This document shows positions 8,206 to 48,494 of a stretch of DNA of 64,000 nt, piece by piece (positions within the stretch are counted from its first letter, which is position 1; each line of letters opens with the position of its first letter). The stretch is from positions 1 to 64,000 of the forward strand of contig MPNE01000006.1 in the NCBI GenBank assembly GCA_002238865.1. The letters are read 5' to 3'. The translations under genes were made by a program, and so were the position numbers. The stretch comes from Gemmatimonadetes bacterium bin94. GTDB taxonomy: Bacteria; Gemmatimonadota; Gemmatimonadetes; Longimicrobiales; Gaopeijiaceae. The notes beneath the pieces were generated by a model. That model had not been told where the DNA came from, did not search any database, and saw only the letters and a list, made by a program, of their open reading frames with translations.

Positions 8206-9624
8206 TCAGGCGATCCGCCTGCGCGGCATCACATGCTCGACGGTGAGTTCATCAGGCATGATCGTCTCTTTGCCATGCTCGTGTCTCATCAGCTCGCACA
8301 GCACCGCGCGGGTGGATCGCGTGGCGCTGCCGCCGTAGGCCTTGCGGGTGCGGATCCCCTCCCTTACGGCCTCGTCTCCGGGGACGCCGACGCGCGTGTT
8401 CCACCGGCGGTTGATCCTGTCGACCCAGTGATCCACATAGCCCTCGTGGGAATCTGGTCCGCGTTCGTGTGCAAGCTCCGCGAAAGCCTTGTTGAGTCCG
8501 CCCAGCTGGCGATCCGCGAGCCACATGCGGGTCAGCCACGAGGAGACAGCCGCGAGCGTCGCTACAAGGGCCGCCGAGCCAGCACTGTTGCAATTGTCCT
8601 GCGTCGCGTCGTTCAACAGTCGCAGGGAGAACGGGCGATGGACATGGAATCCCAACGCACGCAGATGGCACAGCTCGCGCTCCGTGCTGGCGTCGTGGGC
8701 GCCCGCAGTGCCCGTGAGGATCCCGTAGAGCTTCGCGAGTCGGCTAAGCTCGCGGCATAGCGCCCGCCTGTCGTCCTTGCCGTTCCGGACGGCCCACCGC
8801 CGCAGTCCTTCGTAGACTTGGCTAATGCCTGGTGTGTCGCCTGTCCACCACCGCAGAACGTCTCGAAGGAAGATGTCGATCAGTTCGCTTGAATGCCGGG
8901 CATCGAGCGCGCTCTCCATCTCGAGCCAATGCTTGTTGTGGAGCTCCTGCTGCTCGGCGTCCGGTAGCCCCATGAGCAGCCAGTTCTTGACCTTCTCGCT
9001 CTCGGTGAGAGGTCGGCCGGTCGCGTTGAGGCTCTGGAAGATCTGCTGCGGATCGTCGGTGTGATCGAGCCCGATGCTGACCACCCGCAACCGTCCCAGG
9101 CCGTCGAGCAGGGTGGCCGTGTCGTGCTTCGCAACCAGCCGACGCGCAATCCTCCACGCTTGGGATACCGCTCCAGCCCCTCCGGACTTCCCTGTCAGGC
9201 CGTCGCCGTACTCGCGCTCGTCCCCGTCTTGGAGCCTGAGTTTACGTCGCTGGCTCGGCACCGCACCCGGGTTCGTGATCCGAAGGTCGAAAATGCTCTG
9301 TCCGGTCCAAGCCCCGCACACGCCATCGGGTCCCAGCTTGGCGGCGATGCTGGCCAGCAAGATGCTCACCGTGGTCAGTCTCTGCTGGCCGTCCACGACG
9401 CGGAACACCTGAACCGGCATTCCGGCAGGGCCGGGTTCCGGGAAGGTGAGCAGCGTGCCGCCGTAGTGGGTTGCGCCCTCGCCCGCGGCCGCAACAGCCA
9501 AGAGATCCTCCACCAACCGTTCGATGTCTTCGAGGCCCCAGCAGTACCGGCGCTGCCAACGCGGTACGACGTATTGGACCTGCCCGTTCAGCAGATTCAG
9601 AAAGTCGACCGGATTGGAGTTCAT
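8206..9624 (-). pseudogene. GmrSD-type (DUF262/DUF1524) restriction protein, truncated inside its HNH domain
   Basis: The 472-residue product starts at the ATG at 9624. The N-terminal DUF262 domain has YVVPRWQRRYCWG (18-30) and the nucleotide-binding motif RVVDGQQRLTT (76-86). The rest follows the family layout through a helical middle to the C-terminal DUF1524 region. In intact members this region begins with an EH(I/V)MP motif and continues with the other HNH residues. Here the protein reads VEHVMPRRRIA and stops, so only the first HNH His is present. GmrSD-like enzymes cleave modified or invading DNA, and the nuclease step should be dead in this version. The loss coincides with the repeat at 8142-8193. 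The frame is open upstream to 9843, but that extension lacks family character. Confidence 0.8.
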
Positions 9625-10655: not shown

Positions 10656-13280
10656 ATGGCGCGTCGAAAAGGCAAGGCGGGGCGGACCATCGCCACGTAC
10701 GAGCATCCAGACAAGGAGCGGGTGAACAACCCGCCCGTGGGATTGGTCACGCCCGAGACTGACAGGGATGCGGGCGACAAGTCGTACGCTCATGATCCGC
10801 ATCTCGATCCTCACCTCTCCTGGGCGGGTAAGGCAGAGCACACGTCGTTCGAGGTGCCTACGGTGTCGCTGCATGTCCACGAGCGGATCGACCCACACAC
10901 GATCATCGACACTGTACGGAAGCCGAGAGACACTGCAGAGCAGGGATCGCTGTTTGCCACACCGGAGGAAAACCCGCCCCTGCGACAAGCCATCGAGTTC
11001 TACCGGCACCGGCACAACTGGACCAACCGTCTGATCGCGGGCGACAGCCTTCTCGTCATGAACAGCCTGATCGAGAAGGAGGGTCTCGGCGGGCAAGTCC
11101 AGATGGTCTACCTCGACCCGCCCTATGGCATCGAATACAAGAGCAACTTCCAGCCATTCGTGAATCACCGCCGTGTCAGGGACGGGCGGGACGAGGATCT
11201 GACCCAGGAACCCGAGCAGATTCGGGCCTTCCGGGACACGTGGGAACTCGGCATTCACTCCTATCTGTCGTATCTGCGGGACCGGCTGCTGCTGTGCCGC
11301 GAGCTTCTCGCGGACACGGGCTCCATCTTCATGCAGATCAACGACGAGAATCTGTCGCTCGTCCACCTGATCATGTCGGAGGTCTTCGGCGCCGACAACT
11401 TCGTCGTACACATACCCTTCAAGAAGAAAGGCAACCAGAAAGGGGGTCTCCTCGATCCCGTAAACGACTTCCTGATCTGGTTCGCCAAGGACAAAGCCCG
11501 TGTACGGGAGGCGTACAACCAGCTCTTCGAGCCGATGTCTCTCGATACCGATCTCGTCGAGACGTTCCGGTATGTCGAACTGCCGGATGGCGACGTTACG
11601 ACGCTCGCCAAGCTCGAGAAGAGTGAGAATCGGCCTGACAGGTATTATCGTGACCACCCTGATCGGGTACTCTCCGAACACCCAGGTGCTCGGGTCTTTA
11701 CGTCCGGCGACCTCACCGCCGGTGGCTTTCGGAAGAACCAGAGCGTCCCCTTTACATACCGAGGAGAGACTTTCGATCCCGGCGTCTCAAGAGGAAACTG
11801 TTGGAAACACACCGCCATTGCAGAGGAAGGTTCGCCATCCGGAATGGATCGGCTGGCTGCCGCGAACCGCCTCTACGTCGGTCGTGGTCAACTCCGGTTC
11901 AAGCGTTATCTCGACGACTTCGGGTATAGGGCGCTTAGTAACTGGTGGGGTGACGTAGGCGGAGCGGCCAACCGGATCTACGTTGTTCAGACCAACACCG
12001 AAGTCGTCAAGCGCTGCATTCTCATGACCACCCAGCCCGGAGATCTGGTTCTTGACCCCACGTGCGGCGGCGGGACGACGGCTTATGTCGCCGAGGAGAG
12101 GGGCCGCCGCTGGATCACCTGTGATTCATCTCGTGTCTCTCTGACCCTCGCCAAGCGGCGCATCATGAGCGCCATCTTCGAGTACTTCCAACTCGCGCAG
12201 TCCGACGAAGGGGTGGGAGGTGGCTTCTGTTACGAGACGGCCCCGCATATCACATCGACCGATATCGCAAACGACCAGCCGTCCGCCGTCGAGATCCTTT
12301 ACGACCAGCCTCTTGTCGACCGCTCAAAGGCCCGCGTCACCGGTCCCTTCACGGTCGAAGCAGTCCCGGCCCCATCCGTGACTCCGCTCGACGACGTAGC
12401 CGAGCGGGATGCGCTACCGGCCGATGCCTCGGTGGCGCGCACAGGGCCGACGATTCGGCAGGGAGACTGGCGCGACGAGCTTCTGAAGACCGGCATTCGG
12501 GGCAAGGGTGGCCAGCACATTGGGTTCGTGCGGCTGGAGCCGCTGCCCGGCCAGAGGCACCTTCACGCCGAGGGCGAGACGAGACCCGACGAGGGATCGT
12601 CGCCGGGAACGCAAGACACGGCGCTGGGGGTTCGTGCAGTGGTGTCGTTCGGCCCGGATCACGCGCCGATGGAGCAGCGGCAAGTAGAGCAGGCCATCGA
12701 AGAAGCATGGCGTTTGGTGCCGCGACCCGAAGTTGTCGTCTTCGCGGCCTTCCAGTTCGACCCCGAGGCGTCGAAGGACATCGACGAGACGAGCTGGCCC
12801 GGCGTGACGTTGCTCAAGGCGCAGATGAACGCGGACCTGCTGACCGGCGACCTTAAGAAGAAGCGGGCGAGCAACGAGAGCTTCTGGCTCGTCGGCCAGC
12901 CGGACGTGGCGGTCGAACGCCTGTCCGAGGGGGAGGACGAAGGCAAGTTCCGCGTCTCGGTGCAAGGCTTCGACTACTACAACACCAAGACCGGCAACGT
13001 CGAGTCCGGCAACGCCGACCGGATCGCGGTCTGGATGCTGGATCCCGACTACGACGGGCGCAGCCTGTTCCCGCGCCAGGTGTTCTTCCCGATGGCGGGT
13101 GCCAAGGACGGCTGGACCAAGCTGGCGAAGACCCTCAGGGCGGAGATCGACACGACCCGGATGGCGGCCTACCGGGGGACCGTGTCGCTCCCCTTCGAGC
13201 CGGGCAAGCACGGGCGCGCGGCCGTCAAGATCGTGGACGACCGGGGCGTCGAGAGCCTCAAGATCGTGGAATTGGCGTGA
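10656..13280 (+). CDS. Type III-like site-specific DNA-methyltransferase (Mod), adenine-specific
   Basis: An 874-residue methyltransferase. The catalytic motif DPPY lies at 154-157 (VYLDPPYGIEY) and the AdoMet-binding motif DLVLDPTCGGGTT at about 463-475. DPPY before the FxGxG-type motif, with a long recognition region between, is the beta-class N6-adenine arrangement seen in type III Mod proteins. The C-terminal 400 residues are a family-specific extension. ATG at 10656 has AAAGGGG upstream. It is followed without a gap by an MNT antitoxin, a HEPN toxin and a 20-codon stump of the restriction helicase. The enzyme would now act as an orphan methylase. Whether the missing restriction subunit exists elsewhere in the genome cannot be seen here. 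Confidence 0.88.
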   Translation: MARRKGKAGRTIATYEHPDKERVNNPPVGLVTPETDRDAGDKSYAHDPHLDPHLSWAGKAEHTSFEVPTVSLHVHERIDPHTIIDTVRKPRDTAEQGSLFATPEENPPLRQAIEFYRHRHNWTNRLIAGDSLLVMNSLIEKEGLGGQVQMVYLDPPYGIEYKSNFQPFVNHRRVRDGRDEDLTQEPEQIRAFRDTWELGIHSYLSYLRDRLLLCRELLADTGSIFMQINDENLSLVHLIMSEVFGADNFVVHIPFKKKGNQKGGLLDPVNDFLIWFAKDKARVREAYNQLFEPMSLDTDLVETFRYVELPDGDVTTLAKLEKSENRPDRYYRDHPDRVLSEHPGARVFTSGDLTAGGFRKNQSVPFTYRGETFDPGVSRGNCWKHTAIAEEGSPSGMDRLAAANRLYVGRGQLRFKRYLDDFGYRALSNWWGDVGGAANRIYVVQTNTEVVKRCILMTTQPGDLVLDPTCGGGTTAYVAEERGRRWITCDSSRVSLTLAKRRIMSAIFEYFQLAQSDEGVGGGFCYETAPHITSTDIANDQPSAVEILYDQPLVDRSKARVTGPFTVEAVPAPSVTPLDDVAERDALPADASVARTGPTIRQGDWRDELLKTGIRGKGGQHIGFVRLEPLPGQRHLHAEGETRPDEGSSPGTQDTALGVRAVVSFGPDHAPMEQRQVEQAIEEAWRLVPRPEVVVFAAFQFDPEASKDIDETSWPGVTLLKAQMNADLLTGDLKKKRASNESFWLVGQPDVAVERLSEGEDEGKFRVSVQGFDYYNTKTGNVESGNADRIAVWMLDPDYDGRSLFPRQVFFPMAGAKDGWTKLAKTLRAEIDTTRMAAYRGTVSLPFEPGKHGRAAVKIVDDRGVESLKIVELA

Positions 13281-13642
13281 TGGAAGCCTCCGTGCGGGCG
13301 GCGACCGGAGCCGCCCAGGACCGCGAGCGGCTGGCGGCCCGGATCGGCGTGTCCATGAACGCCATCGAGGCTTTCTGCGACCGTTGGCAGGTGGGGGAAC
13401 TGGCGCTGTTCGGTTCCGTGCTTCGCGACGACTTCGGGCCGGACAGCGACATCGACGTGTTGATCCAGTTCAGGTCGGAACGGTCGCCCGGCCTGTTCGG
13501 CATGGCCGGGATGCAGCGGGAACTGGCCGATCTGTTCGCCCGCAGGGTCGATCTGGTGAGCCGGGCCGCCATCGAGGGGAGCCGGAACTACATTCGCAGG
13601 AAGGCGATCCTGGAATCCGCGCGGGTGGTCTATGCCCCGTGA
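13280..13642 (+). CDS. mntA: MNT-family nucleotidyltransferase antitoxin
   Basis: A 120-residue minimal nucleotidyltransferase. The motif ALFGSVLRDDFGPDSDIDVL (about 42-61) contains the GSxxR element and the metal-binding Asp pair of DSDID. In MntA/HepT modules this enzyme neutralises the HEPN RNase, in characterised cases by adding AMP groups to it. The ATG at 13280 overlaps the methyltransferase stop (TGATG); a GTG three bases earlier is an alternative. It overlaps the next gene by 11 bases, as expected for a toxin-antitoxin pair. Its position between mod and the lost res gene suggests that the pair belonged to the restriction locus as a built-in control or second effector. Confidence 0.88.
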   Translation: MEASVRAATGAAQDRERLAARIGVSMNAIEAFCDRWQVGELALFGSVLRDDFGPDSDIDVLIQFRSERSPGLFGMAGMQRELADLFARRVDLVSRAAIEGSRNYIRRKAILESARVVYAP

Positions 13643-13976
13643 CGACTCCGCGTATCTGCTCGACATGCTGCTCGCCGCGCGCGATGCGTTGTCCTTTACC
13701 GAAGACACGTCGTTCGACGACTTCGTGCGGGATCGGCGGACGCAGCTGTCGGTTCTCAAGGCGGTGGAGATCGTCGGCGAGGCCGCCGCGCAGGTGAGCG
13801 AAGACGCGAGGCGGGCGAGCCCGGACATCCCGTGGCGGGAGATCGTCGGCATGCGCAATCGGCTCGTGCATGTCTACTTCGACATCGACCTTCCGCTCGT
13901 CTGGGATACGGTTCGCCACGACCTGCCAGATCTCATCGCCCGATTGGAGCCGCTGGTTCCGCCGGAGACCGGATAG
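13632..13976 (+). CDS. hepT: HEPN-domain toxin (HepT / DUF86)
   Basis: A 114-residue all-helical HEPN protein. The catalytic RNase motif RxxxxHxY is intact: Arg75, His80 and Tyr82 within MRNRLVHVYFDID. Members of this family cut tRNA or mRNA when freed from their MNT partner. The start overlaps mntA by 11 bases and the stop codon overlaps the GTG of the res stump by one base, so the four genes formed one translationally coupled operon. The intact active site suggests the toxin could still be functional although the restriction gene is gone. Confidence 0.88.
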   Translation: MPRDDSAYLLDMLLAARDALSFTEDTSFDDFVRDRRTQLSVLKAVEIVGEAAAQVSEDARRASPDIPWREIVGMRNRLVHVYFDIDLPLVWDTVRHDLPDLIARLEPLVPPETG

Positions 13977-14038
13977 TGCCCAGCGAGACCATCGACCGCT
14001 TGATCGTCAATTCGCCCTACGAAGAGCCTACACGTTAG
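13976..14038 (+). pseudogene. N-terminal stump of a type III-like restriction helicase (Res)
   Basis: Twenty codons from a GTG that shares its first base with the hepT stop. They encode VPSETIDRLIVNSPYEEPTR. The INSPYEEP signature is, from memory of the family, the start of the large DEAD/DEAH restriction subunits that partner this kind of Mod. The frame then hits TAG at 14036 and the roughly 900 remaining codons are absent. The break coincides with the 3' end of the Rpn nuclease gene at 14035. It is a decapitated res gene. The identification rests on a short match and on position in the operon. Confidence 0.6.
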
Positions 14039-15117
14039 GGTTGCGCCTCCGGGACTCCAGGTGGAAGACCACCGCCTTGTCGCACGCTTGCGAGGAACTC
14101 CTCGGCGGAGGCGCAGTCGAGGATCGCGTCCGCAGCGCGGGCCACGAGATCCGGGTCCGTACGGTGGGTCAGCAACCGGGCCAGCTCCCCGGCGGTTTCG
14201 GGGCCGAATCGGCGGGTGACTTGTCGATGCAAGAGCCGTGCCCGCCCTTCCTCTCGCCCTTCTCTTCGCCCACGGCGGAATCCCTGCTGGTCAATGTCCT
14301 CCAGGCCGCGTTGGAATGCCGTCTTGACCGTTCCCATCGTCATCGCCTCCTCCAATTGCCGGCTTGAATAGCCCTCCGAAATTAACACTTCCTTCAAGGT
14401 CTCGGCCATGAATTGGTCGAAGTGCTCGTCCCCCAGTTCTTCGATCACGCGCCACAGTCTCGGAAGCTCCAAGCTCAGCACCTCCGGCGTCCAGTTGTGC
14501 CCCAGGCGCAGCACCATCTCCGGCAGGTCGAGCGGCACCGGCGGCGACCCGGCGGCGGATTTGCGCGAGACCACCTTGTAGGTGTCCGGGGCCGACTCCA
14601 CGAACAAGTCGGCCAGGCGAGTCGGCGCGTTCCAGGGGCCGCCTCCATGGTGAAGCACCAGCGATCGTATGGCCAGCTTGCGTCTGGCGCGACCGTGCTT
14701 CCTGTCGTCGTCGAGGAGAGTCTGGGCCACGAGCAGGTTATACATCGTCGTCCGGAACGCCATGTTCCGCTCCGGCCGATCCTGAAACTCGATCGATAGC
14801 ACGAGAGCCCCATCTTCGTCGCTCAAGTCGGCCCGCAACAGCATGTCGGCGTAGCGCTTCACAAAGCCCTTTCCGATGAGTTCGGTGTTGAGCGTTTCCA
14901 GCGACGTGAAATCGATCCGGTCGGCGAATTCGGGGATATGGCGACGGACCAGCAGCTCGATCATGAGGCGATGGGAGAAAATCTTCTTCAGCGCGGCGTC
15001 GTACAACGGGATTCCGGCCTGGGGAGCGGACGTGTCCTCTGGAGAGAAGAGCGACAGTAAGCTGGGCTGGATCGAGGGGCAGGCACATGGCTGCATGGGC
15101 CGCGGCTCGCGGGTCAC
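14035..15117 (-). CDS. Rpn/YhgA-like PD-(D/E)XK nuclease with DUF4351 tail
   Basis: A 360-residue protein. The PD-(D/E)XK core is visible as YADMLLRADLSDEDGALVLS followed by IEFQDRPERNMAFR, giving a D...ExQ active-site pattern. The C-terminus (GRREGREEGRARLLHRQ then RRFGPETAGELARLL) matches DUF4351, which often ends Rpn-type proteins. Rpn proteins are nucleases linked to recombination and, in E. coli, to phage defence. Start is taken as GTG at 15117 because AAGGAG lies seven bases upstream; ATG at 15096 lacks a site. It converges on the operon whose res gene is broken exactly here, and diverges from the K+ channel gene. Confidence 0.8.
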   Translation of the reverse strand: MTREPRPMQPCACPSIQPSLLSLFSPEDTSAPQAGIPLYDAALKKIFSHRLMIELLVRRHIPEFADRIDFTSLETLNTELIGKGFVKRYADMLLRADLSDEDGALVLSIEFQDRPERNMAFRTTMYNLLVAQTLLDDDRKHGRARRKLAIRSLVLHHGGGPWNAPTRLADLFVESAPDTYKVVSRKSAAGSPPVPLDLPEMVLRLGHNWTPEVLSLELPRLWRVIEELGDEHFDQFMAETLKEVLISEGYSSRQLEEAMTMGTVKTAFQRGLEDIDQQGFRRGRREGREEGRARLLHRQVTRRFGPETAGELARLLTHRTDPDLVARAADAILDCASAEEFLASVRQGGGLPPGVPEAQP

Positions 15118-15226: not shown

Positions 15227-15910
15227 ATGAGGCAGAACTCTCCATTCTCGGAACGAATCGAACGCGGGGTGATTGCCGTCATCTGCCTGGATCTGGTGCT
15301 CCAGACCACCGAGACCGTGGACGCCATGTCCGGGGCGGCGTCGCTCTTTTATTGGGCTGGTGTGGGCGTCTGGTTGCTCTACACGGTCGAGTGGTGCATC
15401 CGCATCCGCCAGGCGGAGGACTGGAAGAAATACGCGTTCAGCTTCATCGGGATCGTGGACTTGCTGGCCATCCTGCCGCTGTGGGCGTTCACGGGATTCG
15501 ATCTGAAGGCACTTCGGGCCTTTCGCCTCTTCCGCCTGTTTGTCACGACGGCGAAGCTTGCCACCCGCACCAGCGCGGTAGCCAAGCTCGCAAGGGCGTT
15601 CCGGTTCGCCATGGACGAGGCCGGTGCGCTGTTCGCCGGCACATGCATCCTTGTGATCACGGCCGGGTTCGGCATGTACCACCTCGAACACGGGGTGCAA
15701 CCGGAGATCTTCGCCTCTGTTTACGATGGACTATGGTGGGCGGTGGTCACGCTGACGACGGTGGGGTACGGAGACATCCAGCCCGTGACGGCCGGCGGGA
15801 GGATCCTGGCCACCGTGGCGATGTTCGCCGGAATCGGTGTCATCGGGGCGGCGTGCGGGATCATGGCGGACGCGCTGAGGGAGGCGAGCGACGGGGAGAG
15901 GGCGGGGTAG
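15227..15910 (+). CDS. Voltage-gated potassium channel-like protein
   Basis: A 227-residue channel. Hydrophobic segments S1-S3 are followed by an Arg-rich S4 (LKALRAFRLFRLF, Arg97/100/103), a pore helix and the K+ selectivity filter TVGYGD at 178-183, then S6. The length and layout fit single-subunit bacterial Kv channels that assemble as tetramers in the inner membrane. S4 has fewer charges than animal channels, so voltage dependence is uncertain. ATG at 15227 follows AGGAAGGA. It is divergent from the Rpn nuclease gene and converges with the stator-like operon, separated by a terminator-like stem at 15901-15930. Confidence 0.9.
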   Translation: MRQNSPFSERIERGVIAVICLDLVLQTTETVDAMSGAASLFYWAGVGVWLLYTVEWCIRIRQAEDWKKYAFSFIGIVDLLAILPLWAFTGFDLKALRAFRLFRLFVTTAKLATRTSAVAKLARAFRFAMDEAGALFAGTCILVITAGFGMYHLEHGVQPEIFASVYDGLWWAVVTLTTVGYGDIQPVTAGGRILATVAMFAGIGVIGAACGIMADALREASDGERAG

Positions 15911-15930
15911 TGGGTCGACCTTCCCCCGCC
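15901..15930. terminator. Stem-loop between convergent genes
   Basis: Arms GGCGGGG (15901-15907) and CCCCGCC (15924-15930) can pair across a 16-base loop. The stem overlaps the end of the channel gene and the stop codon of the last stator-operon gene. No T-run is present on either strand, so termination efficiency is uncertain. Confidence 0.45.
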
Positions 15931-17144
15931 TACCACCGGAACCAGAACCTCCGCCACAGCTGGTCCTGCCGCTCCTGGAACACCACTTTCCGGTCCCCCG
16001 TCCGGTCAACCGGCCGGATCCAGAAGCGGCACCCCATCGGCCCGAAGGCCTCAGTCCTCGACACGCCCTCCGCATGGAAGGGCTGGGTAACGCGCAGGAA
16101 TTCCGCCGGGCCGTACACCCGCCCTTCCTCGATCGCCGCCGCGGACCTCGTCGCCTCGGGGTCGCTGCCGATCCTGTGCGGGGGCGCGGTCTTGAACAGT
16201 CGCATGCCCTGGTCGGTCAGCTCGATCCGAAAGATGTACTCGGGATTGCCCTCGGCATCCATCCAGCACGGTGGGGGATCGATTCCGCTGCCACGGCGGA
16301 GTTGCTGCAGCTGCGTTTCCCGGTACTCGGCCCGTCCAACCGCATCGTCCCGCTGACGCTGGGCGTCCCAGATGCGGCTCCGCAGCGTGTCTTCCCGGAA
16401 GCGGCTCGCGCTGAGGTCGGTGGCAAGCGAGTCGAGCAAGGAGTCGCGGTTCGCGAGCATCTGCCGCCTGGCAGCCGTGAGTTCCCGGTCCAGGGTCCCG
16501 ATCGCGCTCCTGGCAGTTTCCAGCGAATCGCGCAGCCCGACCGCCTGCGCCGCCTGCTCGACAATCTCCTCGGCCTCGTCCGCAGTCAGGCCGTCACTGC
16601 CGGCAATACCGTCGCGCAACTGCTCGGCCACCTGCTCGGCCTCCGCAAGGCGCTTCGCGAGCGAGTCCTGCAAGGCCGTTGCGTCTTGAAGAAGTCGTTC
16701 GCCGTCGGCCGCCGCCTGCCTTAGCGAATCGCGCTCGGCCGCGAGGCGGACCGCTCGATCGACCACGCCGCCTTCCACACCGCTGCCGGCCAGCATCGAG
16801 TCCGCTTCCGCGGCGCGCACTCTCGCCCGGTCACGCTCCCTCTCGGCATCCTGGGCCCGGGCCTGGAGCGCCTCCACCGTGTCGCGAAGCTGCCGTGCGT
16901 ACTCGTACCACGCATCCGCGTTGCTCCAGGACACGGTCTCCGTGTTCATCATCTCCTGCGTCATTCTCAGGTCGACCCTGGCTGTGTCGAGTTCCGCCTG
17001 GGCCGTGTCGCGCTGGTGCTGCTCGAAGCGGATCAGCACCGCGCAGGCGAGCAGCAGAATGAACACGACGATGCTGAAGGTCTCGGCCAGGGTGAGGCCC
17101 AGCGCCAGTCCCTTGCGGTAGTGCTTCTTCTCGGCGGGGAGCAT
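15930..17144 (-). CDS. MotB/ZorB-like one-TM protein with long coiled coil
   Basis: A 404-residue protein and last gene of the four-gene operon. After a short cytoplasmic start comes one TM helix (about 13-38, GLALGLTLAETFSIVVFILL) that begins with a potentially protonatable Glu21. MotB, TolR and ZorB have a single N-terminal TM with a critical acidic residue in a comparable place, though usually Asp. Residues 40-290 are coiled coil. The C-terminal 100 residues form a globular domain starting with PPCWMDAEGNPEYIF and ending with GCRFWIRPVD; no OmpA peptidoglycan-binding motif is seen. The ATG at 17144 has GGAGGACC upstream and lies 16 bases after the previous stop. It is inferred to be the anchor subunit of an ion-driven motor. 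Confidence 0.6.
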   Translation of the reverse strand: MLPAEKKHYRKGLALGLTLAETFSIVVFILLLACAVLIRFEQHQRDTAQAELDTARVDLRMTQEMMNTETVSWSNADAWYEYARQLRDTVEALQARAQDAERERDRARVRAAEADSMLAGSGVEGGVVDRAVRLAAERDSLRQAAADGERLLQDATALQDSLAKRLAEAEQVAEQLRDGIAGSDGLTADEAEEIVEQAAQAVGLRDSLETARSAIGTLDRELTAARRQMLANRDSLLDSLATDLSASRFREDTLRSRIWDAQRQRDDAVGRAEYRETQLQQLRRGSGIDPPPCWMDAEGNPEYIFRIELTDQGMRLFKTAPPHRIGSDPEATRSAAAIEEGRVYGPAEFLRVTQPFHAEGVSRTEAFGPMGCRFWIRPVDRTGDRKVVFQERQDQLWRRFWFRW

Positions 17145-17160
17145 GCGGCCGGTCCTCCGC

Positions 17161-18528
17161 TCAGGATCGGCGCCGGAATCGTGCCAGCCGCGCCATCCCG
17201 CGCCGCACGCCGGCCGCCGCACGTCGGATTCCGCCGGCCAGCGCCGCAGCCGGCCCGACCGGCACGTCCACGGCCGCGATCTCTTCCATGCCCTCGGTCA
17301 ACTCCCGGGCCTGCCTCCTCCCGGCTTCGGCCAGTTGATCCCTGATATCGCGAGCCGTGCCGGGGACACCGGCAAGCCCGTCCCGGGCATCCCTCAGTGA
17401 TTCCCTCAGTCCTTCAAACTCGGCATTCATGGCGGCGGCGTGCCTTCCGATCCCTCGAATGCCACGAGTCCCCGCATGCAGCTGGTCCACGGCCTCCTTC
17501 CAGAGGGGCAGGACCCGATGTTCGTCCACGGCATCGGCGATGCCTGCGAGCGCTCCCTCGGCCCGCTTGGCGCTTTCCCGTACGCCGGATAGAGTCTGGC
17601 CCAGCGCGGCCACCGCCGCGTCGGTATTCTCCACTCCACGCAAGGTGACGTCGACCCGTTCCGCCGCGCTTCCCGCAACCTCGTTGACCCTGTCGAAGGC
17701 GGCTCCCGCCGTGTCGAGCCGGGCCCGCACCCCGCCGAGCTGGTCGTCGAGCCTGGCCTGTACATCGTCGAAGCGCACCCCGAGCCCCTCCGCATGACCC
17801 TGCAGCGTGGTCAGGGCCCCGGAGCATGCGCCGCACTCGCCGCGAAGCCGATCCATCGCACCGGTCAGCGACGCGGTGGCGTTGGCGACGTAACCCGCAT
17901 ATGCGTCCAGCGATTCGTAGGTTGCGGCCGTCTTTCCGGCCCCCTCCGCAATGGTCTCGGCCATCGCTCCCAGACCGGCGGCCGAGTCGCGGAACTTGTG
18001 CGCCATGATATCGAGGTCGTCGCGCGCCCGGTCGAGGCTTTCCTTCATGCGCGACACCGTCTCTTCGAGCTCGGACCGGGTGGTATCCACGATGTCCCCG
18101 GGCGACTCGTGCGACATGGTGAACCAGACGCGCCCCGCGAGCCCGACGATGGTCGTCAGCAGCGCGATCCCGAAGTTCCGGATGGACCCCGTTGTGCCGC
18201 TCGCGTCACCGCCGGGCGCTCCCCAGTCGAAGGTGATCAACGCGGCGACAAGGGCCACAAAGGTGAAGAGAAGGCCCAGGTAGTAGATCGAGTCGCCCTT
18301 GGTGTCGCCGGGGACTTCGATGTCGTCGACGTGGCGCTCGATGTAGAGCGCATAGCCGATCATGACCGCGGCCACGACGAAAGCGACCAACCACGGCCCC
18401 GTGCCGAGGAGGTTCCCGAACAGGATGACAAGACAGCCGATTCCCAGCACGATCAGCCAGGCGTCGCGGTGCTGCTTGCGTGCCGTTTCGGATTGTAGGG
18501 CGGGTCGCTGTCCGGAAACGAGCGTCAT
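17161..18528 (-). CDS. MotA/TolQ/ZorA-like proton-channel protein with coiled-coil tail
   Basis: A 455-residue protein with four TM helices (about 24-41, 45-63, 82-100, 118-137) and then more than 300 residues of mostly coiled coil. TM3-TM4 read YYLGLLFTFVALVAALITF, then a Gly-rich turn, then NFGIALLTTIVGLAGRV. This closely parallels the GLxGTVxGxxxxF ... GIxxALxTTxxGL pattern of TolQ/ExbB/MotA pore helices. Four TMs plus a long cytoplasmic tail is the ZorA layout. ATG at 18528 overlaps the previous stop (ATGA). The family link is by eye and no search was run. Inferred role: the ion-conducting stator subunit partnering the 404-residue protein downstream. Confidence 0.6.
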   Translation of the reverse strand: MTLVSGQRPALQSETARKQHRDAWLIVLGIGCLVILFGNLLGTGPWLVAFVVAAVMIGYALYIERHVDDIEVPGDTKGDSIYYLGLLFTFVALVAALITFDWGAPGGDASGTTGSIRNFGIALLTTIVGLAGRVWFTMSHESPGDIVDTTRSELEETVSRMKESLDRARDDLDIMAHKFRDSAAGLGAMAETIAEGAGKTAATYESLDAYAGYVANATASLTGAMDRLRGECGACSGALTTLQGHAEGLGVRFDDVQARLDDQLGGVRARLDTAGAAFDRVNEVAGSAAERVDVTLRGVENTDAAVAALGQTLSGVRESAKRAEGALAGIADAVDEHRVLPLWKEAVDQLHAGTRGIRGIGRHAAAMNAEFEGLRESLRDARDGLAGVPGTARDIRDQLAEAGRRQARELTEGMEEIAAVDVPVGPAAALAGGIRRAAAGVRRGMARLARFRRRS

Positions 18529-19361
18529 CCTTCCACCATGATCCACCTGGGCCGCGCGAGCGGGGATGCTCCCTGATCGAGGAAATAGTCTTCCCAGAAG
18601 CTGCGCAGCGTTCCGCCCTGGATGACCCCGGCCCCGCCTCGCCGCGCCAGCAGAAACACCGACACCTCGACGCCGGAGAGGTCCACCCGCAGCGTCCCGT
18701 AGTCCGGGTTGCGAGAGAGCGGGCCGAAGTCCACGGGCTCACGGTAGAAGGAGAGGTTCCTGGAGTTCTGGATCATGTCGGACACGACAAGCAACTGGCG
18801 CGGGATATCGGCCGCGCGGGGCTGGAACGCGCTCACCGCGGCAACCTGTACTCCTTCCACGATCGGCGAGATCGAGTCGCCTTCGACATTGAGCAGTGCG
18901 GCAAGCGTCTGCTGCAGCGGCGCCAGGAACTCGTCCCGGTAACGCCGCTCCGCAAGCTGGGGGTTGCCTGTAAGCGACGATACGCCGTCCGGGTGGGCGG
19001 GCTTGCACAACCTCAATACGGCGGCCGTGTTGCCTCTGCCCGCCTGCCCGACCGTGTAGACGCGGATCTCGGTCGTCGCGGGCGCGTCTTCGATGCCCTG
19101 CAGGACGCGCGGCGCGCCCGACCCCTCCTGCACGGCGGTCAACGTGTCCGAGGGATCCACCAGGATCGCGATCTGTCCGGCGTATTCTTCGTCTTCCGGG
19201 CAGTTCACGGCGTCGAAGACGCGCCCCTGGCGCTGGCCACGGACGAACAGCGCGACCAGGATTGCCGCCGCCAGCGCCCCGATGACGACTCCGCCCAGGT
19301 TCTTGCGCCTCGCCGCCCGCCTCCGCTGCTCCCTCGTTTGCCTGCGCGCGTGGCGCCTCAT
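18525..19361 (-). CDS. Membrane-anchored vWA-like protein
   Basis: A 278-residue protein with a very basic N-terminus (MRRHARRQTREQRRRAARRK), one TM helix (about 21-41) and an extracytoplasmic domain with vWA features. These are a central strand ending in a MIDAS-like motif ILVDPSDTLTAVQ (Asp69), a later SPIVEGV segment, and the strand LLVVSDMIQNS. The domain keeps the DxSD metal-site flavour of vWA folds but is divergent. It overlaps the genes on both sides by ATGA. Such domains usually mediate metal-dependent protein contacts, so in this operon it may couple the 4-TM protein to the stator pair. That coupling is inference. Confidence 0.55.
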   Translation of the reverse strand: MRRHARRQTREQRRRAARRKNLGGVVIGALAAAILVALFVRGQRQGRVFDAVNCPEDEEYAGQIAILVDPSDTLTAVQEGSGAPRVLQGIEDAPATTEIRVYTVGQAGRGNTAAVLRLCKPAHPDGVSSLTGNPQLAERRYRDEFLAPLQQTLAALLNVEGDSISPIVEGVQVAAVSAFQPRAADIPRQLLVVSDMIQNSRNLSFYREPVDFGPLSRNPDYGTLRVDLSGVEVSVFLLARRGGAGVIQGGTLRSFWEDYFLDQGASPLARPRWIMVEG

Positions 19362-20869
19362 GTCGGCAGGGCCTTGTCGTGCGGGTCAAGCCTTGTGATT
19401 TCGTTCACAATCTCGCGGCACTCGTCGTGGCAGTCCCTCAGCTTCTGCTCGCGCTGCTCGAGCGCCGCGTGCATGTGACGGCTGCGCTGCTCCGCCTCGG
19501 CTTCGCTGATCAGACCCGACCTGTCCGGCGCTTCCGGCAGATCCCAGTCGGCCGCCCAGGGTGTCTGCCAGATGTGCGGCGGATCGGTGGAACGCGCTTC
19601 CCTGTTTGCGTTCCTGTACATGTCGAGTGCGCCGATGCAGCTCTTCTCCAGGTCGCGCGCGTAGCCGCAAAGATCGGTGTGCCGCGCATGAAGCTTGCCG
19701 TAGGCGGCCAGCGCGAGCTGCCGTGCCTCGACCGGATCGCGGAAATCGGTGCGCAACTTGCGCGCCGCCTCGTCGTGGAGCTCGTTGAGGTGCGCCAGCA
19801 CTTCACGGCGATCGGCCAGGAGTGTTCCCTCGGTCCTCCGTCGGTGCCGCTCCCGCTTCCCGTATCCGGGATAGGGGTCGTCGAACTTGAACCAGTCCAT
19901 GGCGGCCGCGGCGCACATGGCAAGCCCGATAAGGAGCAGCATGTAGGAGTAGAAACCGTTCAATCCGAAGGGGCTGGCGCGGAAGAGACAGAGGGCCTCC
20001 TGGTCCGCGTGAGACTCGTCGGGGCCGCGCCAGCAGGTCGGGGGTACGGAGTCCGCTTGCGGGGATTGGGCGTCCGGAGACTGGCCCACCGGCGTCTGGC
20101 CCACCGCAGACTGCATTGCAGGCGTCTGCGCGTCCGCCAACTGCGCCACCTGCGTCGTGTCGGGGGGCAGGGGATAGTCCGGCGGCAGTGCCTCCCGGTA
20201 GTGGGCCACGAAGAGATTCCAGAACACCGCGACTACTGCGACCGAGGCGAGCACAGCCAGCCCGCCGACCTTCCGGCGGGGATCGCGGTGGTGGAGCTGG
20301 CGCACCATTGCCGCAAGCACCCAGCCGAGCACACCCACGTTGACGACGCTGATCAGGACCGCGTACGTCGTGCCGGCCAGCAGTCCGCCCTCGACGTTGG
20401 TACCGAAGAAGAGGCCGTTGACGAGGGTCTCCCCGAGCACCAGAGCAACCAGAATACCCCAGTGCCAGCCGCGGCTCTCCGGATAGTCGGCGTCGGCACT
20501 CCGCCCCTCGTCACGCTTGAAACGATTGACTTCGCCGATCGCGTGCTGCGCTTCCCGCGCCAGCCCCGCCAGATCCGGACGCTCCTCCGCGACCGCGTCC
20601 CTCATCTCCTTGCAGGTGTTCTGCACCAGGGGATCGGCGCCGCCGTCGCTCGGGGACGGCTGCATGCGCTCCTCGAGCGCGGATCGGTGCCGATGGTATT
20701 CGTTGCGCCGCTTCGCGTACCGGTCGTCGCAGTGGCCCACAACCTCCATTTCCACGTTGTCGAGCGTAGGCTGGCTGGTGTGGGGCTGGCCGTCCTGGCC
20801 GCGCTCGCGGCCGCGTTCCTTGAGCCTGAATCGCTCAACCAGGGATGAGGCGGTCGGGGTTGGATCCAT
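19358..20869 (-). CDS. Four-TM protein with flanking coiled coils, first gene of the stator-like operon
   Basis: A 503-residue protein of unrecognised family. A cytoplasmic helical N-terminus (1-135) precedes TM1-TM3 (about 137-230: WGILVALVLGETLVNGLFFG, a Gly-rich hairpin, then AVLASVAVVAVFW). Next comes an external loop with Gln/Pro/Ser-rich imperfect repeats (QTPAMQSAVGQTPVGQSPD), then TM4 (about 310-330) and a second cytoplasmic coiled-coil region to the end. TM1 contains a buried Glu. The ATG at 20869 has GAGAGGA upstream. It is the promoter-proximal gene and overlaps the vWA-like gene by ATGA. No enzymatic motif is visible; it could be a membrane scaffold or sensor for the system. Confidence 0.5.
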   Translation of the reverse strand: MDPTPTASSLVERFRLKERGRERGQDGQPHTSQPTLDNVEMEVVGHCDDRYAKRRNEYHRHRSALEERMQPSPSDGGADPLVQNTCKEMRDAVAEERPDLAGLAREAQHAIGEVNRFKRDEGRSADADYPESRGWHWGILVALVLGETLVNGLFFGTNVEGGLLAGTTYAVLISVVNVGVLGWVLAAMVRQLHHRDPRRKVGGLAVLASVAVVAVFWNLFVAHYREALPPDYPLPPDTTQVAQLADAQTPAMQSAVGQTPVGQSPDAQSPQADSVPPTCWRGPDESHADQEALCLFRASPFGLNGFYSYMLLLIGLAMCAAAAMDWFKFDDPYPGYGKRERHRRRTEGTLLADRREVLAHLNELHDEAARKLRTDFRDPVEARQLALAAYGKLHARHTDLCGYARDLEKSCIGALDMYRNANREARSTDPPHIWQTPWAADWDLPEAPDRSGLISEAEAEQRSRHMHAALEQREQKLRDCHDECREIVNEITRLDPHDKALPT

Positions 20870-46806: not shown

Positions 46807-47787
46807 ATGGAGAAGATGCCCGACGAGACCCGAAAGGTTCTGGTGACCGGTGGTGCCGGCTTCATCGGGAGTCATGTCGCCGAGGCCCACCTCAAGCGGG
46901 GCGATCGTGTCTGGATCGTGGACGACCTCTCTTCCGGACGACTCGAGAACGTCCCGCGCGGCGCCGAGTTCCACCATTTGGACATCGCGGACGCACGGGT
47001 GGCCGACCTGATTCGGGATGTCGGCTTCGACCTGGTCAACCACCATGCGGCCCAGATCGACGTGCGGGTCTCCGTCGAGGATCCCGGCCTGGATGCACAG
47101 GTTAACATCGCGGGACTGATCAACGTCCTGGAAGCGGCGCGCCGCAGCTGCGTATCGCGGTTCGTCTTCGTGTCAAGCGGAGGCGTCGTCTACGGCGAAC
47201 CCGAGGTGTTTCCCACCCCCGAGGTTGCGCCGAAGGTGCCCATGTCTCCGTACGGGGTCTCCAAACTGGCGGGCGAGTTGTACCTGAACTACTACAGGGA
47301 AATTCACGGCATGGACCAGGTCGCGCTTCGCTACGGCAACGTCTACGGCCCCCGCCAGGATCCGCACGGCGAAGCAGGGGTCGTGGCCATCTTCTCGAAC
47401 CGCCTCCTGCGGGGCGAGCCGCTGGTGGTCTACGGCGACGGGCACCAGACCCGGGACTACGTCTACGTCGGGGACGTGGCGCGCGCCAACCTGCTGGCAG
47501 CGGAGATGACCCTTCCGGATGCGCCGGGGATCGACGCACGGGCCTACAACGTGGCAACCGGGGCGGCGACGAGCGTCAACGAGCTGGCGGACACGCTGGA
47601 AGACGCGGCCGGAATGCGGACTGGCCGGGAACATCGGGCAGGCCGCCCGGGCGATGTCCGCCGCAGCACCCTCGCGGTGGGGCGCATCCGCGGACGGGGA
47701 TGGGCACCCGCGCTGAGCCTGCGCGACGGCCTCGCCGCGACCTTTCGGCACATCGCGGCCACGAACGGGGCGTTGGCGGTCGGATGA
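46807..47787 (+). CDS. NAD-dependent epimerase/dehydratase (UDP-glucose 4-epimerase-like)
   Basis: A 326-residue extended short-chain dehydrogenase. NAD-binding LVTGGAGFIGSHVAE (12-26), a catalytic SSGGVVYGE segment and the YGVSK active site fit GalE-like epimerases, as does RYGNVYGPRQDPHGEAG. The likely substrate is a UDP-sugar for envelope glycans. Start is ATG at 46807; ATG at 46816 is possible because GGAG lies just before it. Its stop overlaps the tolQ start by ATGA, so it leads the Tol-Pal operon. Confidence 0.85.
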   Translation: MEKMPDETRKVLVTGGAGFIGSHVAEAHLKRGDRVWIVDDLSSGRLENVPRGAEFHHLDIADARVADLIRDVGFDLVNHHAAQIDVRVSVEDPGLDAQVNIAGLINVLEAARRSCVSRFVFVSSGGVVYGEPEVFPTPEVAPKVPMSPYGVSKLAGELYLNYYREIHGMDQVALRYGNVYGPRQDPHGEAGVVAIFSNRLLRGEPLVVYGDGHQTRDYVYVGDVARANLLAAEMTLPDAPGIDARAYNVATGAATSVNELADTLEDAAGMRTGREHRAGRPGDVRRSTLAVGRIRGRGWAPALSLRDGLAATFRHIAATNGALAVG

Positions 47788-48494
47788 TCGCTCTCATGCT
47801 GCAAACCGCTCCGCCGCAGAACATCGCGGACATGATCCTGGGGGCAAGCCCTCCCACGCAGGTGGTCCTCGCGGTGTTGGGGGTCTTCTCGGTCCTGTCC
47901 CTCTGGGTGATCATCGCGAAAGTCCGCCATTTTCGCGCGGTGGGCCGCGACGGCGACGAGTTCCTGGCCCGCATGGAGACGTCCAAGAGTCTCGCCGACG
48001 CGTCCGAAGCCGTGCTCTCCCTGCCCGAGTCTCCGTACACCCGCCTCTTTCGCGGGGGCCTCAACTTCTTCGCCGAGCTCAGTCCGGGGGCGTTGAGCAG
48101 TGTGCGGGATCTCCCCGGGCTGTCGCTGACACAGCTGGAGGCGCTCCGCCTGGTCATGGACAAGGTGGAGGGGGAGGAGATCGACGAACTTCGGCACGGC
48201 CTGAACTGGCTCGCCATCATAGGATCGGTCTCGCCGCTGCTGGGGTTGATGGGCACGGTCATCGGCATCATGAACACCTTCCTGGGGATCACGACGTCGA
48301 GCTCCACCGCCATCAGCGCCGTCGCGCCGGGGGTGGCCGAGGCGCTGATCACCACGGTCGCCGGGCTGGCCGTCGCCATCCCGTCCGTGATTGCGTACAA
48401 CCACTTCGCGTCCCGGCTCAACCTCGTCCACGGCGAGTTCGAGGGCTTCGTCAGTGAGTTCATAGGGACCCTCGCGAAGGAAAGGCACGTATGA
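47784..48494 (+). CDS. tolQ: TolQ/ExbB-type proton channel subunit
   Basis: A 236-residue inner-membrane protein with three TM helices. SVSPLLGLMGTVIGIMNTF (148-166) and AVAPGVAEALITTVAGLAVA (179-198) are the classic TolQ/ExbB pore motifs. With TolR it uses the proton gradient to drive the periplasmic partner. The gene order that follows (tolR, tonB/tolA-like, tolB, pal, cpoB) identifies it as the Tol-Pal version. ATG at 47784 overlaps the epimerase stop. Confidence 0.93.
   Translation: MIALMLQTAPPQNIADMILGASPPTQVVLAVLGVFSVLSLWVIIAKVRHFRAVGRDGDEFLARMETSKSLADASEAVLSLPESPYTRLFRGGLNFFAELSPGALSSVRDLPGLSLTQLEALRLVMDKVEGEEIDELRHGLNWLAIIGSVSPLLGLMGTVIGIMNTFLGITTSSSTAISAVAPGVAEALITTVAGLAVAIPSVIAYNHFASRLNLVHGEFEGFVSEFIGTLAKERHV

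What the first reader, a model, noticed from the sequence alone, without database searches (positions are those of the whole stretch)
15930..20869. Four-gene operon that looks like an ion-driven motor (stator) without Zorya effectors
Seen: four minus-strand genes, the first three junctions being ATGA overlaps or nearly so. They encode a 4-TM coiled-coil protein, a one-TM vWA-like protein (MIDAS-like DPSDTLT), a four-TM protein whose TM3-TM4 carry the TolQ/ExbB/MotA pore pattern (LGLLFTF... and GIALLTTIVGL) with a 300-residue coiled-coil tail, and a one-TM protein with a Glu in the TM and a long coiled coil. Known: Zorya uses ZorA (MotA-like with tail) and ZorB as an anchored motor that activates cytosolic effectors. 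Here no ZorC/D/E-type gene or nuclease is present, and the ZorB-like protein lacks an OmpA domain. Inference: an undescribed motor-type complex, perhaps for defence or envelope work.
Basis: partly seen in the sequence, partly recalled or inferred. Interest (0 to 1): 0.82.

Follow-up and report, generated by a model that had tools for sequence, protein, structure and literature searches.

The report
Zorya-like four-gene membrane motor operon
Sponge-associated Gemmatimonadota and plasmids of soil and nodule bacteria share an undescribed set of four neighbouring genes that look like an ion-driven membrane motor related to the Zorya phage-defence motor, but with two unfamiliar membrane partners instead of Zorya's DNA-cutting partners.

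Summary
Four minus-strand genes (A 4-TM coiled coil, B tethered vWA, C stator-like, D one-TM with Glu21) form one unit. A-B-C-D keeps its order in 12 further loci of the genus, in three other Gemmatimonadota genera and in every alphaproteobacterial plasmid lineage inspected. C matches TolQ/ExbB and ZorA by profile-profile comparison nearly as well as they match each other; controls fail. B's model finds vWA folds. D keeps Glu at the ion site. Alphaproteobacterial D carries a ZorB-like OmpA domain, replaced in Gemmatimonadota by an unknown PPCW domain. No Zorya effector gene occurs in the units. Flanks often hold known defence systems: GmrSD and a methyltransferase here; BREX, Gabija, Bunzi elsewhere. 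An exported SNase-type nuclease adjoins the unit in 7 of 11 plasmid lineages and is the only SNase in G202, 1.4 kb away. Most likely: an undescribed Zorya-like, wall-anchored ion motor coupled to an A-B membrane module, probably anti-phage. The motor reading is supported; 'no nuclease' and 'no OmpA' are true here but not across the family. Function is untested, and Zorya membership fails on several features: a new variant of a known kind.

The parts
19358..20869 (-). Gene A, 503 aa: about 130-aa cytosolic N-terminus with a conserved RGxxRG...P motif, four TM, a periplasmic loop with conserved Cys279 and Cys294 (within Gemmatimonadota), cytosolic coiled-coil C-terminus; no known family
   Evidence: no match above cut-off in Pfam, PADLOC, NCBIfam
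18525..19361 (-). Gene B, 278 aa: one TM and a periplasmic von Willebrand A-like domain with a partly degenerate MIDAS (D69-x-S71-D72, S165, S194-D195)
   Evidence: AlphaFold2 model pTM 0.67 whose best Foldseek hits are vWA domains (Rpn10, TFIIH p44, BatB, integrin I; best E 2.3e-5)
17161..18528 (-). Gene C, 455 aa: stator-like protein, four TM; TM3 (YYLGLLFTF) and TM4 (FGIALLTTIVGL) carry the TolQ/ExbB/ZorA pore motifs; TM2-TM3 loop of only about 15-20 residues; cytosolic coiled-coil tail of about 315 residues
   Evidence: hhalign vs TolQ/ExbB E 3.5e-5, vs ZorA E 2.6e-5, controls P <= 4%; alignments
15930..17144 (-). Gene D, 404 aa: axle-like protein, one TM with Glu21 (GLTLAETFSIVVF), about 250-residue periplasmic coiled coil, C-terminal PPCW...RFWFRW domain of about 115 residues in place of OmpA
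   Evidence: orthologues at the same operon position have ZorB-like OmpA domains; own model poor, mean pLDDT 53
8206..9624 (-). Neighbouring GmrSD/Orf5-like restriction protein, the only GmrSD_N match in the genome
10656..13280 (+). Neighbouring DNA methyltransferase (PADLOC MTase_III 1.6e-135; Pfam N6_N4_Mtase)
13280..13976 (+). Neighbouring nucleotidyltransferase / HepT-like pair (MNT-HEPN type toxin-antitoxin)
14035..15006 (-). Neighbouring Rpn/YhgA-like gene (Pfam Transposase_31)

Best explanation
The operon encodes an undescribed Zorya-like ion-driven motor complex, most likely for anti-phage defence. C forms the ring of pore helices and the cytosolic tail; D is the axle, whose Glu21 takes the ion-binding place of the Asp of ZorB/MotB and whose long periplasmic part is anchored at the cell wall, by an OmpA domain in Alphaproteobacteria and by the PPCW domain here. 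A, a four-TM coiled-coil protein, and B, a membrane-tethered periplasmic vWA protein, form a partner module that also occurs without C and D. Proposed action: envelope disturbance at phage entry alters the anchored D; ion flow turns or switches the C-D motor; the change passes through the C tail to the cytosolic coiled coils of A, or through D to periplasmic B, and triggers the response. Where an exported SNase-type nuclease adjoins the operon it is the candidate effector, attacking DNA in the periplasm; elsewhere A-B itself or a protein in trans must act. Shown: gene unit, C's relationship, vWA fold, conserved Glu, OmpA in relatives, frequent defence-gene flanks. Inferred: assembly, ion flow, sensing, coupling, defence, wall binding by PPCW, SNase as effector.
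For: C vs TolQ/ExbB hhalign P 72%, E 3.5e-5; vs ZorA P 75%, E 2.6e-5; TolQ vs ZorA P 85%, E 6.4e-6; reversed and A-family controls P <= 4%. Paracoccus C matches PADLOC ZorA2 at 1.3e-6 over residues 110-276 (partly coiled coil); Paracoccus D matches ZorB2 at 5.7e-25, NCBIfam ZorB2 at 1.7e-17, best PDB hit ZorB of type II ZorAB, 8VVI. Glu in the GLTxAE motif in all 21 D proteins examined. Gene order kept; A and B are each found on 24 plasmids, in the same genera. B vWA fold. Defence flanks: window, BREX in L024, Gabija in L025, Bunzi and Vsr in L026, GmrSD in L031, DrmD/BrxHI-like helicase in L077; 68 PADLOC families at E <= 1e-30 among 69 flanking genes against 9 among 63 control genes. SNase adjacency in varying orientation.
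Against: No functional data. D's TM segment alone does not match ZorB or ExbD better than reversed controls, so its axle role rests on gene position, the Glu and the OmpA domain of relatives. C lies below every curated cut-off and has no match to Pfam MotA_ExbB. Several loci (L021, L030, L069, L074, L075, L076) have no known defence neighbour that I saw. The locus-level excess over control windows is not significant (7/13 vs 3/11, p 0.18; gene level p 0.012, genes not independent). SNase is absent from G000 altogether, and close SNase relatives occur on plasmids without the operon.
Confidence: 0.55

Rival explanations
1. An envelope-maintenance or force-transducing system like Tol-Pal or Ton: the C-D motor uses ion flow to move the tethered vWA protein B and wall-bound D across the periplasm, protecting or remodelling the envelope; defence neighbours reflect shared mobility.
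For: Inner-membrane-tethered vWA proteins driven by TolQR-like motors have been proposed (PMC12204202); B is such a protein in outline; four genomes share one syntenic site without recognised defence genes (L019, L020, L022, L023); flanks on Paracoccus plasmids are metabolic.
Against: No SHLS motif or Pro-rich linker seen in B; patchy presence in the genus (13 of 23 genomes), plasmid carriage, and defence systems beside several copies are unlike housekeeping envelope genes.
Confidence: 0.25
2. A divergent Zorya subtype that uses ordinary Zorya effectors (ZorC/D/E) or other nucleases encoded elsewhere in the genome.
For: ZorAB-like core; a genuine Zorya with SNF2 helicase exists in the same genus (G006, L136); a SNF2 helicase lies near the unit in L077.
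Against: G000 has no ZorA or ZorB match by the models used; effector genes are not linked; C lacks the cytosolic domain between TM2 and TM3; Glu replaces Asp.
Confidence: 0.08
3. A membrane-depolarising abortive-infection device: sensing opens the C-D ion path, or A makes the pore, and the cell dies or stalls; no nuclease is needed.
For: All four proteins are membrane proteins and most Gemmatimonadota with the operon have no SNase in the genome.
Against: No pore-forming family found in A; ZorAB alone is reported not to suffice for defence (PMC8565338).
Confidence: 0.08
4. C is just a coiled-coil membrane protein whose TM helices resemble TolQ by convergence.
For: No Pfam MotA_ExbB hit; many of C's weak hits in PADLOC and PDB are coiled-coil matches.
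Against: TM-only profile alignment to TolQ and ZorA in register over both pore helices, far above reversed controls; partner D with OmpA/ZorB similarity in relatives.
Confidence: 0.04

Closest known systems
Zorya anti-phage system, ZorAB core (type II ZorAB, PDB 8VVI; types I-III)
   Same: Two adjacent genes for a MotA/TolQ/ExbB-related multi-TM protein with a long cytosolic coiled-coil tail and a one-TM protein with an acidic residue at the start of the TM; OmpA domain of ZorB type in the alphaproteobacterial orthologues; defence-island neighbours.
   Different: Glu instead of Asp; C has a TM2-TM3 loop of only 15-20 residues where ZorA has about 100; D in Gemmatimonadota has a coiled coil and PPCW domain instead of OmpA; no ZorC/D/E/F/G; two extra constant genes A and B.
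TolQR / ExbBD / MotAB 5:2 ion-driven motors
   Same: Pore motifs of C's TM3 and TM4 align with those of TolQ/ExbB.
   Different: C is below the Pfam MotA_ExbB threshold, has a long tail and no large cytosolic domain; D's TM does not align significantly with ExbD/TolR.
Proposed IM-tethered vWA force transducers beside TolQR-like motors (PMC12204202)
   Same: A single-TM protein with a periplasmic vWA fold encoded next to a stator pair.
   Different: B has no SHLS TM motif or proline-rich linker by inspection, belongs to a four-gene unit with A, and C/D are Zorya-like rather than TolQR-like.
GldLM gliding / type 9 secretion motor
   Same: Minimal stator without a large cytosolic domain, and a Glu in the membrane (from general knowledge, not tested).
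   Different: In GldLM the Glu lies in the L subunit; here it lies in the axle-like subunit.

Membership tests
MotA/TolQ/ExbB stator family (gene C) | Pore-helix signature in two consecutive TM helices | tested here: met
   hhalign C vs TolQ/ExbB E 3.5e-5, in register over LGLLFTF and GIALLTTIVGL; controls P <= 4%
MotA/TolQ/ExbB stator family (gene C) | Pfam PF01618 match above gathering score | tested here: not met
   No PF01618 match for C at E <= 1; four canonical members elsewhere in the genome do match
MotA/TolQ/ExbB stator family (gene C) | Large cytosolic domain before the pore helices | tested here: not met
   TM2-TM3 loop about 15-20 residues against about 100 in ZorA of the same phylum
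Zorya | ZorA recognised by curated models | tested here: not met
   Window C: PADLOC ZorA1 0.0025 over the coiled coil only, NCBIfam 9.3 of 190 bits; Paracoccus C: ZorA2 1.3e-6
Zorya | ZorB with OmpA-like peptidoglycan-binding domain | tested here: inconclusive
   Absent from window D; present in alphaproteobacterial orthologues, ZorB2 5.7e-25
Zorya | Asp in the ZorB TM (D24 type I, D21 type II; PMC11890865) | tested here: not met
   Glu in all 21 D proteins examined
Zorya | Effector genes ZorC/D, ZorE or ZorF/G beside zorAB | tested here: not met
   None within the units seen; A and B match no Zor model
Zorya | Long cytosolic ZorA tail | tested here: met
   Coiled-coil tail of roughly 200-490 residues after TM4 in C orthologues
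Zorya | 5:2 assembly, ion-driven, protects from phage | not testable with these tools
   No complex modelling or assay available
von Willebrand A domain (gene B) | vWA Rossmann-like fold | tested here: met
   Foldseek top hits nearly all vWA, prob 1.00, E 2.3e-5, TM-score to target about 0.5; model mean pLDDT 67
von Willebrand A domain (gene B) | Intact MIDAS (DxSxS...T...D) | tested here: inconclusive
   D69, S/T71 and D195 kept, fifth position of DxSxS variable

The most novel reading that the evidence does not exclude
A distinct class of motor-driven phage defence: a Glu-type, wall-anchored ion motor lacking the usual cytosolic stator domain signals to a dedicated vWA / 4-TM membrane module and, in some lineages, to an exported SNase-type nuclease, so that DNA would be attacked in the periplasm during entry rather than in the cytosol as in Zorya.
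Probability: 0.25. Interest if true: 0.88.

Novelty: new variant of a known kind. Interest (0 to 1): 0.72.

Why it matters
Ion-driven 5:2 motors are known in a handful of tasks; Zorya is the phage defence known to use one, and how its motor signals to its effectors is still being worked out. A second, differently accessorised motor unit, spread across two phyla and on conjugative plasmids, would show that such motors were recruited more than once, would make the Asp-to-Glu change and the missing cytosolic domain directly testable, and offers a vWA protein and a four-TM protein as new coupling parts. It also shows wall anchoring by OmpA being exchanged for another domain.

Tried and rejected
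Single-family searches of Pfam, PADLOC and NCBIfam gave mostly coiled-coil noise for C and D, so only TM-region profile comparisons with reversed controls were trusted. PDB sequence search with C (whole or TM only) found coiled-coil or chance matches. The D model was too poor to use. D's TM against ExbD/ZorB by hhalign was no better than reversed controls: not counted as evidence. Viral contigs and phage records: no relatives of B. A wider B alignment was too diverse to scan viral contigs. Other phyla could not be sampled by the genome search because a plasmid locus cannot be a centre, and genome contigs allowed one narrow scan. The PPCW-type D was not found on plasmids. ZorA from L136 found nothing on plasmids by tblastn. 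SNase as an obligatory fifth gene was rejected: G000 and most sister genomes have no SNase.
Full report
WHAT IS THERE. Four minus-strand genes fill 15930-20869. I call them A (19358-20869, 503 aa), B (18525-19361, 278 aa), C (17161-18528, 455 aa) and D (15930-17144, 404 aa). A/B and B/C overlap by ATGA; C/D are 16 nt apart with D starting at the ATG of MLPAEKKHYRKG, the start that orthologues keep. The host is a Gemmatimonadota genome whose nearest named relatives are titled Gemmatimonadota or Longimicrobiales MAGs; the sponge origin suggested by their bin names is my inference.

THE UNIT IS CONSERVED. C was found in 13 of 23 genomes of the genus (own genome included) and in none of 36 other genomes of the order in that search. 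In 12 further loci A, B, C and D stand together in order; a thirteenth (L031) is a decaying copy with a truncated C and no D. A profile of B over 395 genomes of the phylum added three full units in other genera (L075, L076, L077) and several loci with only an A-B pair (L078-L082). On plasmids, B and A each match 24 records, by genus the same ones: Rhizobium, Sinorhizobium, Microvirga, Paracoccus, Tistrella. In every plasmid lineage inspected the order is A-B-C-D. dN/dS is low for A, B and D and higher for C, whose tail diverges.

WHAT THE PROTEINS ARE. C: profile-profile comparison of the TM region gives P 72%, E 3.5e-5 against TolQ/ExbB and P 75%, E 2.6e-5 against ZorA of the same phylum; TolQ against ZorA, known relatives, gives P 85%, E 6.4e-6. 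Reversed profiles and the A family give P of 4% or less. The alignment puts LGLLFTF and GIALLTTIVGL on the two pore helices. C lacks the large cytosolic segment before the pore helices that ZorA has and ends in a long coiled-coil tail. D: the motif GLTxAE, with Glu at the start of the TM, is kept in all 21 proteins examined (L077 has FTLTE, L163 LTQAE). In Alphaproteobacteria D ends in an OmpA domain that matches ZorB2 at 5.7e-25 (Paracoccus) and, in the PDB, ZorB of type II ZorAB, 8VVI. In Gemmatimonadota this end is replaced by a PPCW...RFWFRW domain without a Pfam match, also recognisable in the divergent L077. The TM segment alone does not align significantly with ZorB or ExbD. B: the model (pTM 0.67) finds vWA folds first; its metal site is only partly kept. 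A: four TM, no known family.

SURROUNDINGS. Left of the operon in the window lie a GmrSD/Orf5-like protein (the only GmrSD_N in the genome, 6.3 kb away), a methyltransferase, an MNT-HepT pair and nuclease-like genes. Elsewhere the unit lies next to BREX (L024; the single BrxC of G015), Gabija (L025; the only strong GajA of G021, about 1.3 kb away), Bunzi and Vsr (L026), two GmrSD genes (L031), a DrmD/BrxHI-like helicase (L077) and PD-Lambda-1 (L073). As a control I scanned 69 genes flanking 13 Gemmatimonadota units and 63 genes of 11 control windows chosen by fixed coordinates: 68 against 9 PADLOC families at E <= 1e-30. My count of distinct defence-like proteins, at least 13 against about 3, gives p 0.012; by locus 7/13 against at most 3/11 gives p 0.18. 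So the link is suggestive, not proven; the families in the single-copy examples were chosen after seeing them.

A RECURRENT NUCLEASE. An SNase gene adjoins the unit in seven of eleven plasmid lineages: downstream same strand (L070, L163), downstream opposite strand (L072/L160, L073) or upstream same strand (L161, L164, L165). Three of the proteins tested begin with a signal-like hydrophobic segment; the one tested against NCBIfam carries a C-terminal 'sunset' domain. In L077 an SNase with an N-terminal hydrophobic segment lies 1.4 kb away and is the only SNase of that 5.4-Mb genome. It is absent beside the unit in Sinorhizobium B11, Tistrella and Paracoccus, and from G000 and most sister genomes altogether, and its relatives also occur away from the operon. 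I treat it as an optional candidate effector.

HOW IT PROBABLY WORKS. See best explanation. By analogy with Zorya, whose tail, peptidoglycan-binding domain and TM Asp are needed for defence (PMC11890865), an anchored C-D motor would respond to envelope disturbance; A and B would couple it to the response. The steps after assembly are inference.

MEMBERSHIP AND NOVELTY. It may work like ZorAB, but it fails curated ZorA models, the Asp, the effector genes and, in this phylum, OmpA; I do not file it as Zorya. Searches of the held literature found no description, though the library is incomplete and the Nature paper on Zorya is not held. New variant of a known kind.

Noticed in passing
L078, L079, L080, L082 (and L081 in rearranged form): A-B pairs without C and D in the same genus and family; L082 lies beside conjugation (T4SS-like) genes. 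Suggests that A-B is a module of its own.
   Followed up: partly
L031:4948-8088: Decaying copy of the operon (C truncated, D lost) between an integrase-like gene and two GmrSD genes, an SspD-like and an HSP90-like ATPase gene.
   Followed up: partly
L136 (G006:C2:12000-22000): A genuine Zorya locus (ZorA, ZorB with SYSDL Asp, a ZorC-like gene, SNF2 helicase) in the same genus; no ZorA or ZorB match in the window's own genome.
   Followed up: partly
L166 and L167, about 8930-9064: Only the C-terminal end of the SNase remains next to the operon in two Rhizobium plasmids: probable decay of the nuclease gene.
   Followed up: no
window 47700-48494: A canonical TolQ/ExbB gene of the same genome, useful as internal reference.
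   Followed up: partly
window 15227-15910; also L021, L027, L029: A small voltage-gated-like potassium channel gene lies near the operon in several genomes of the genus.
   Followed up: no
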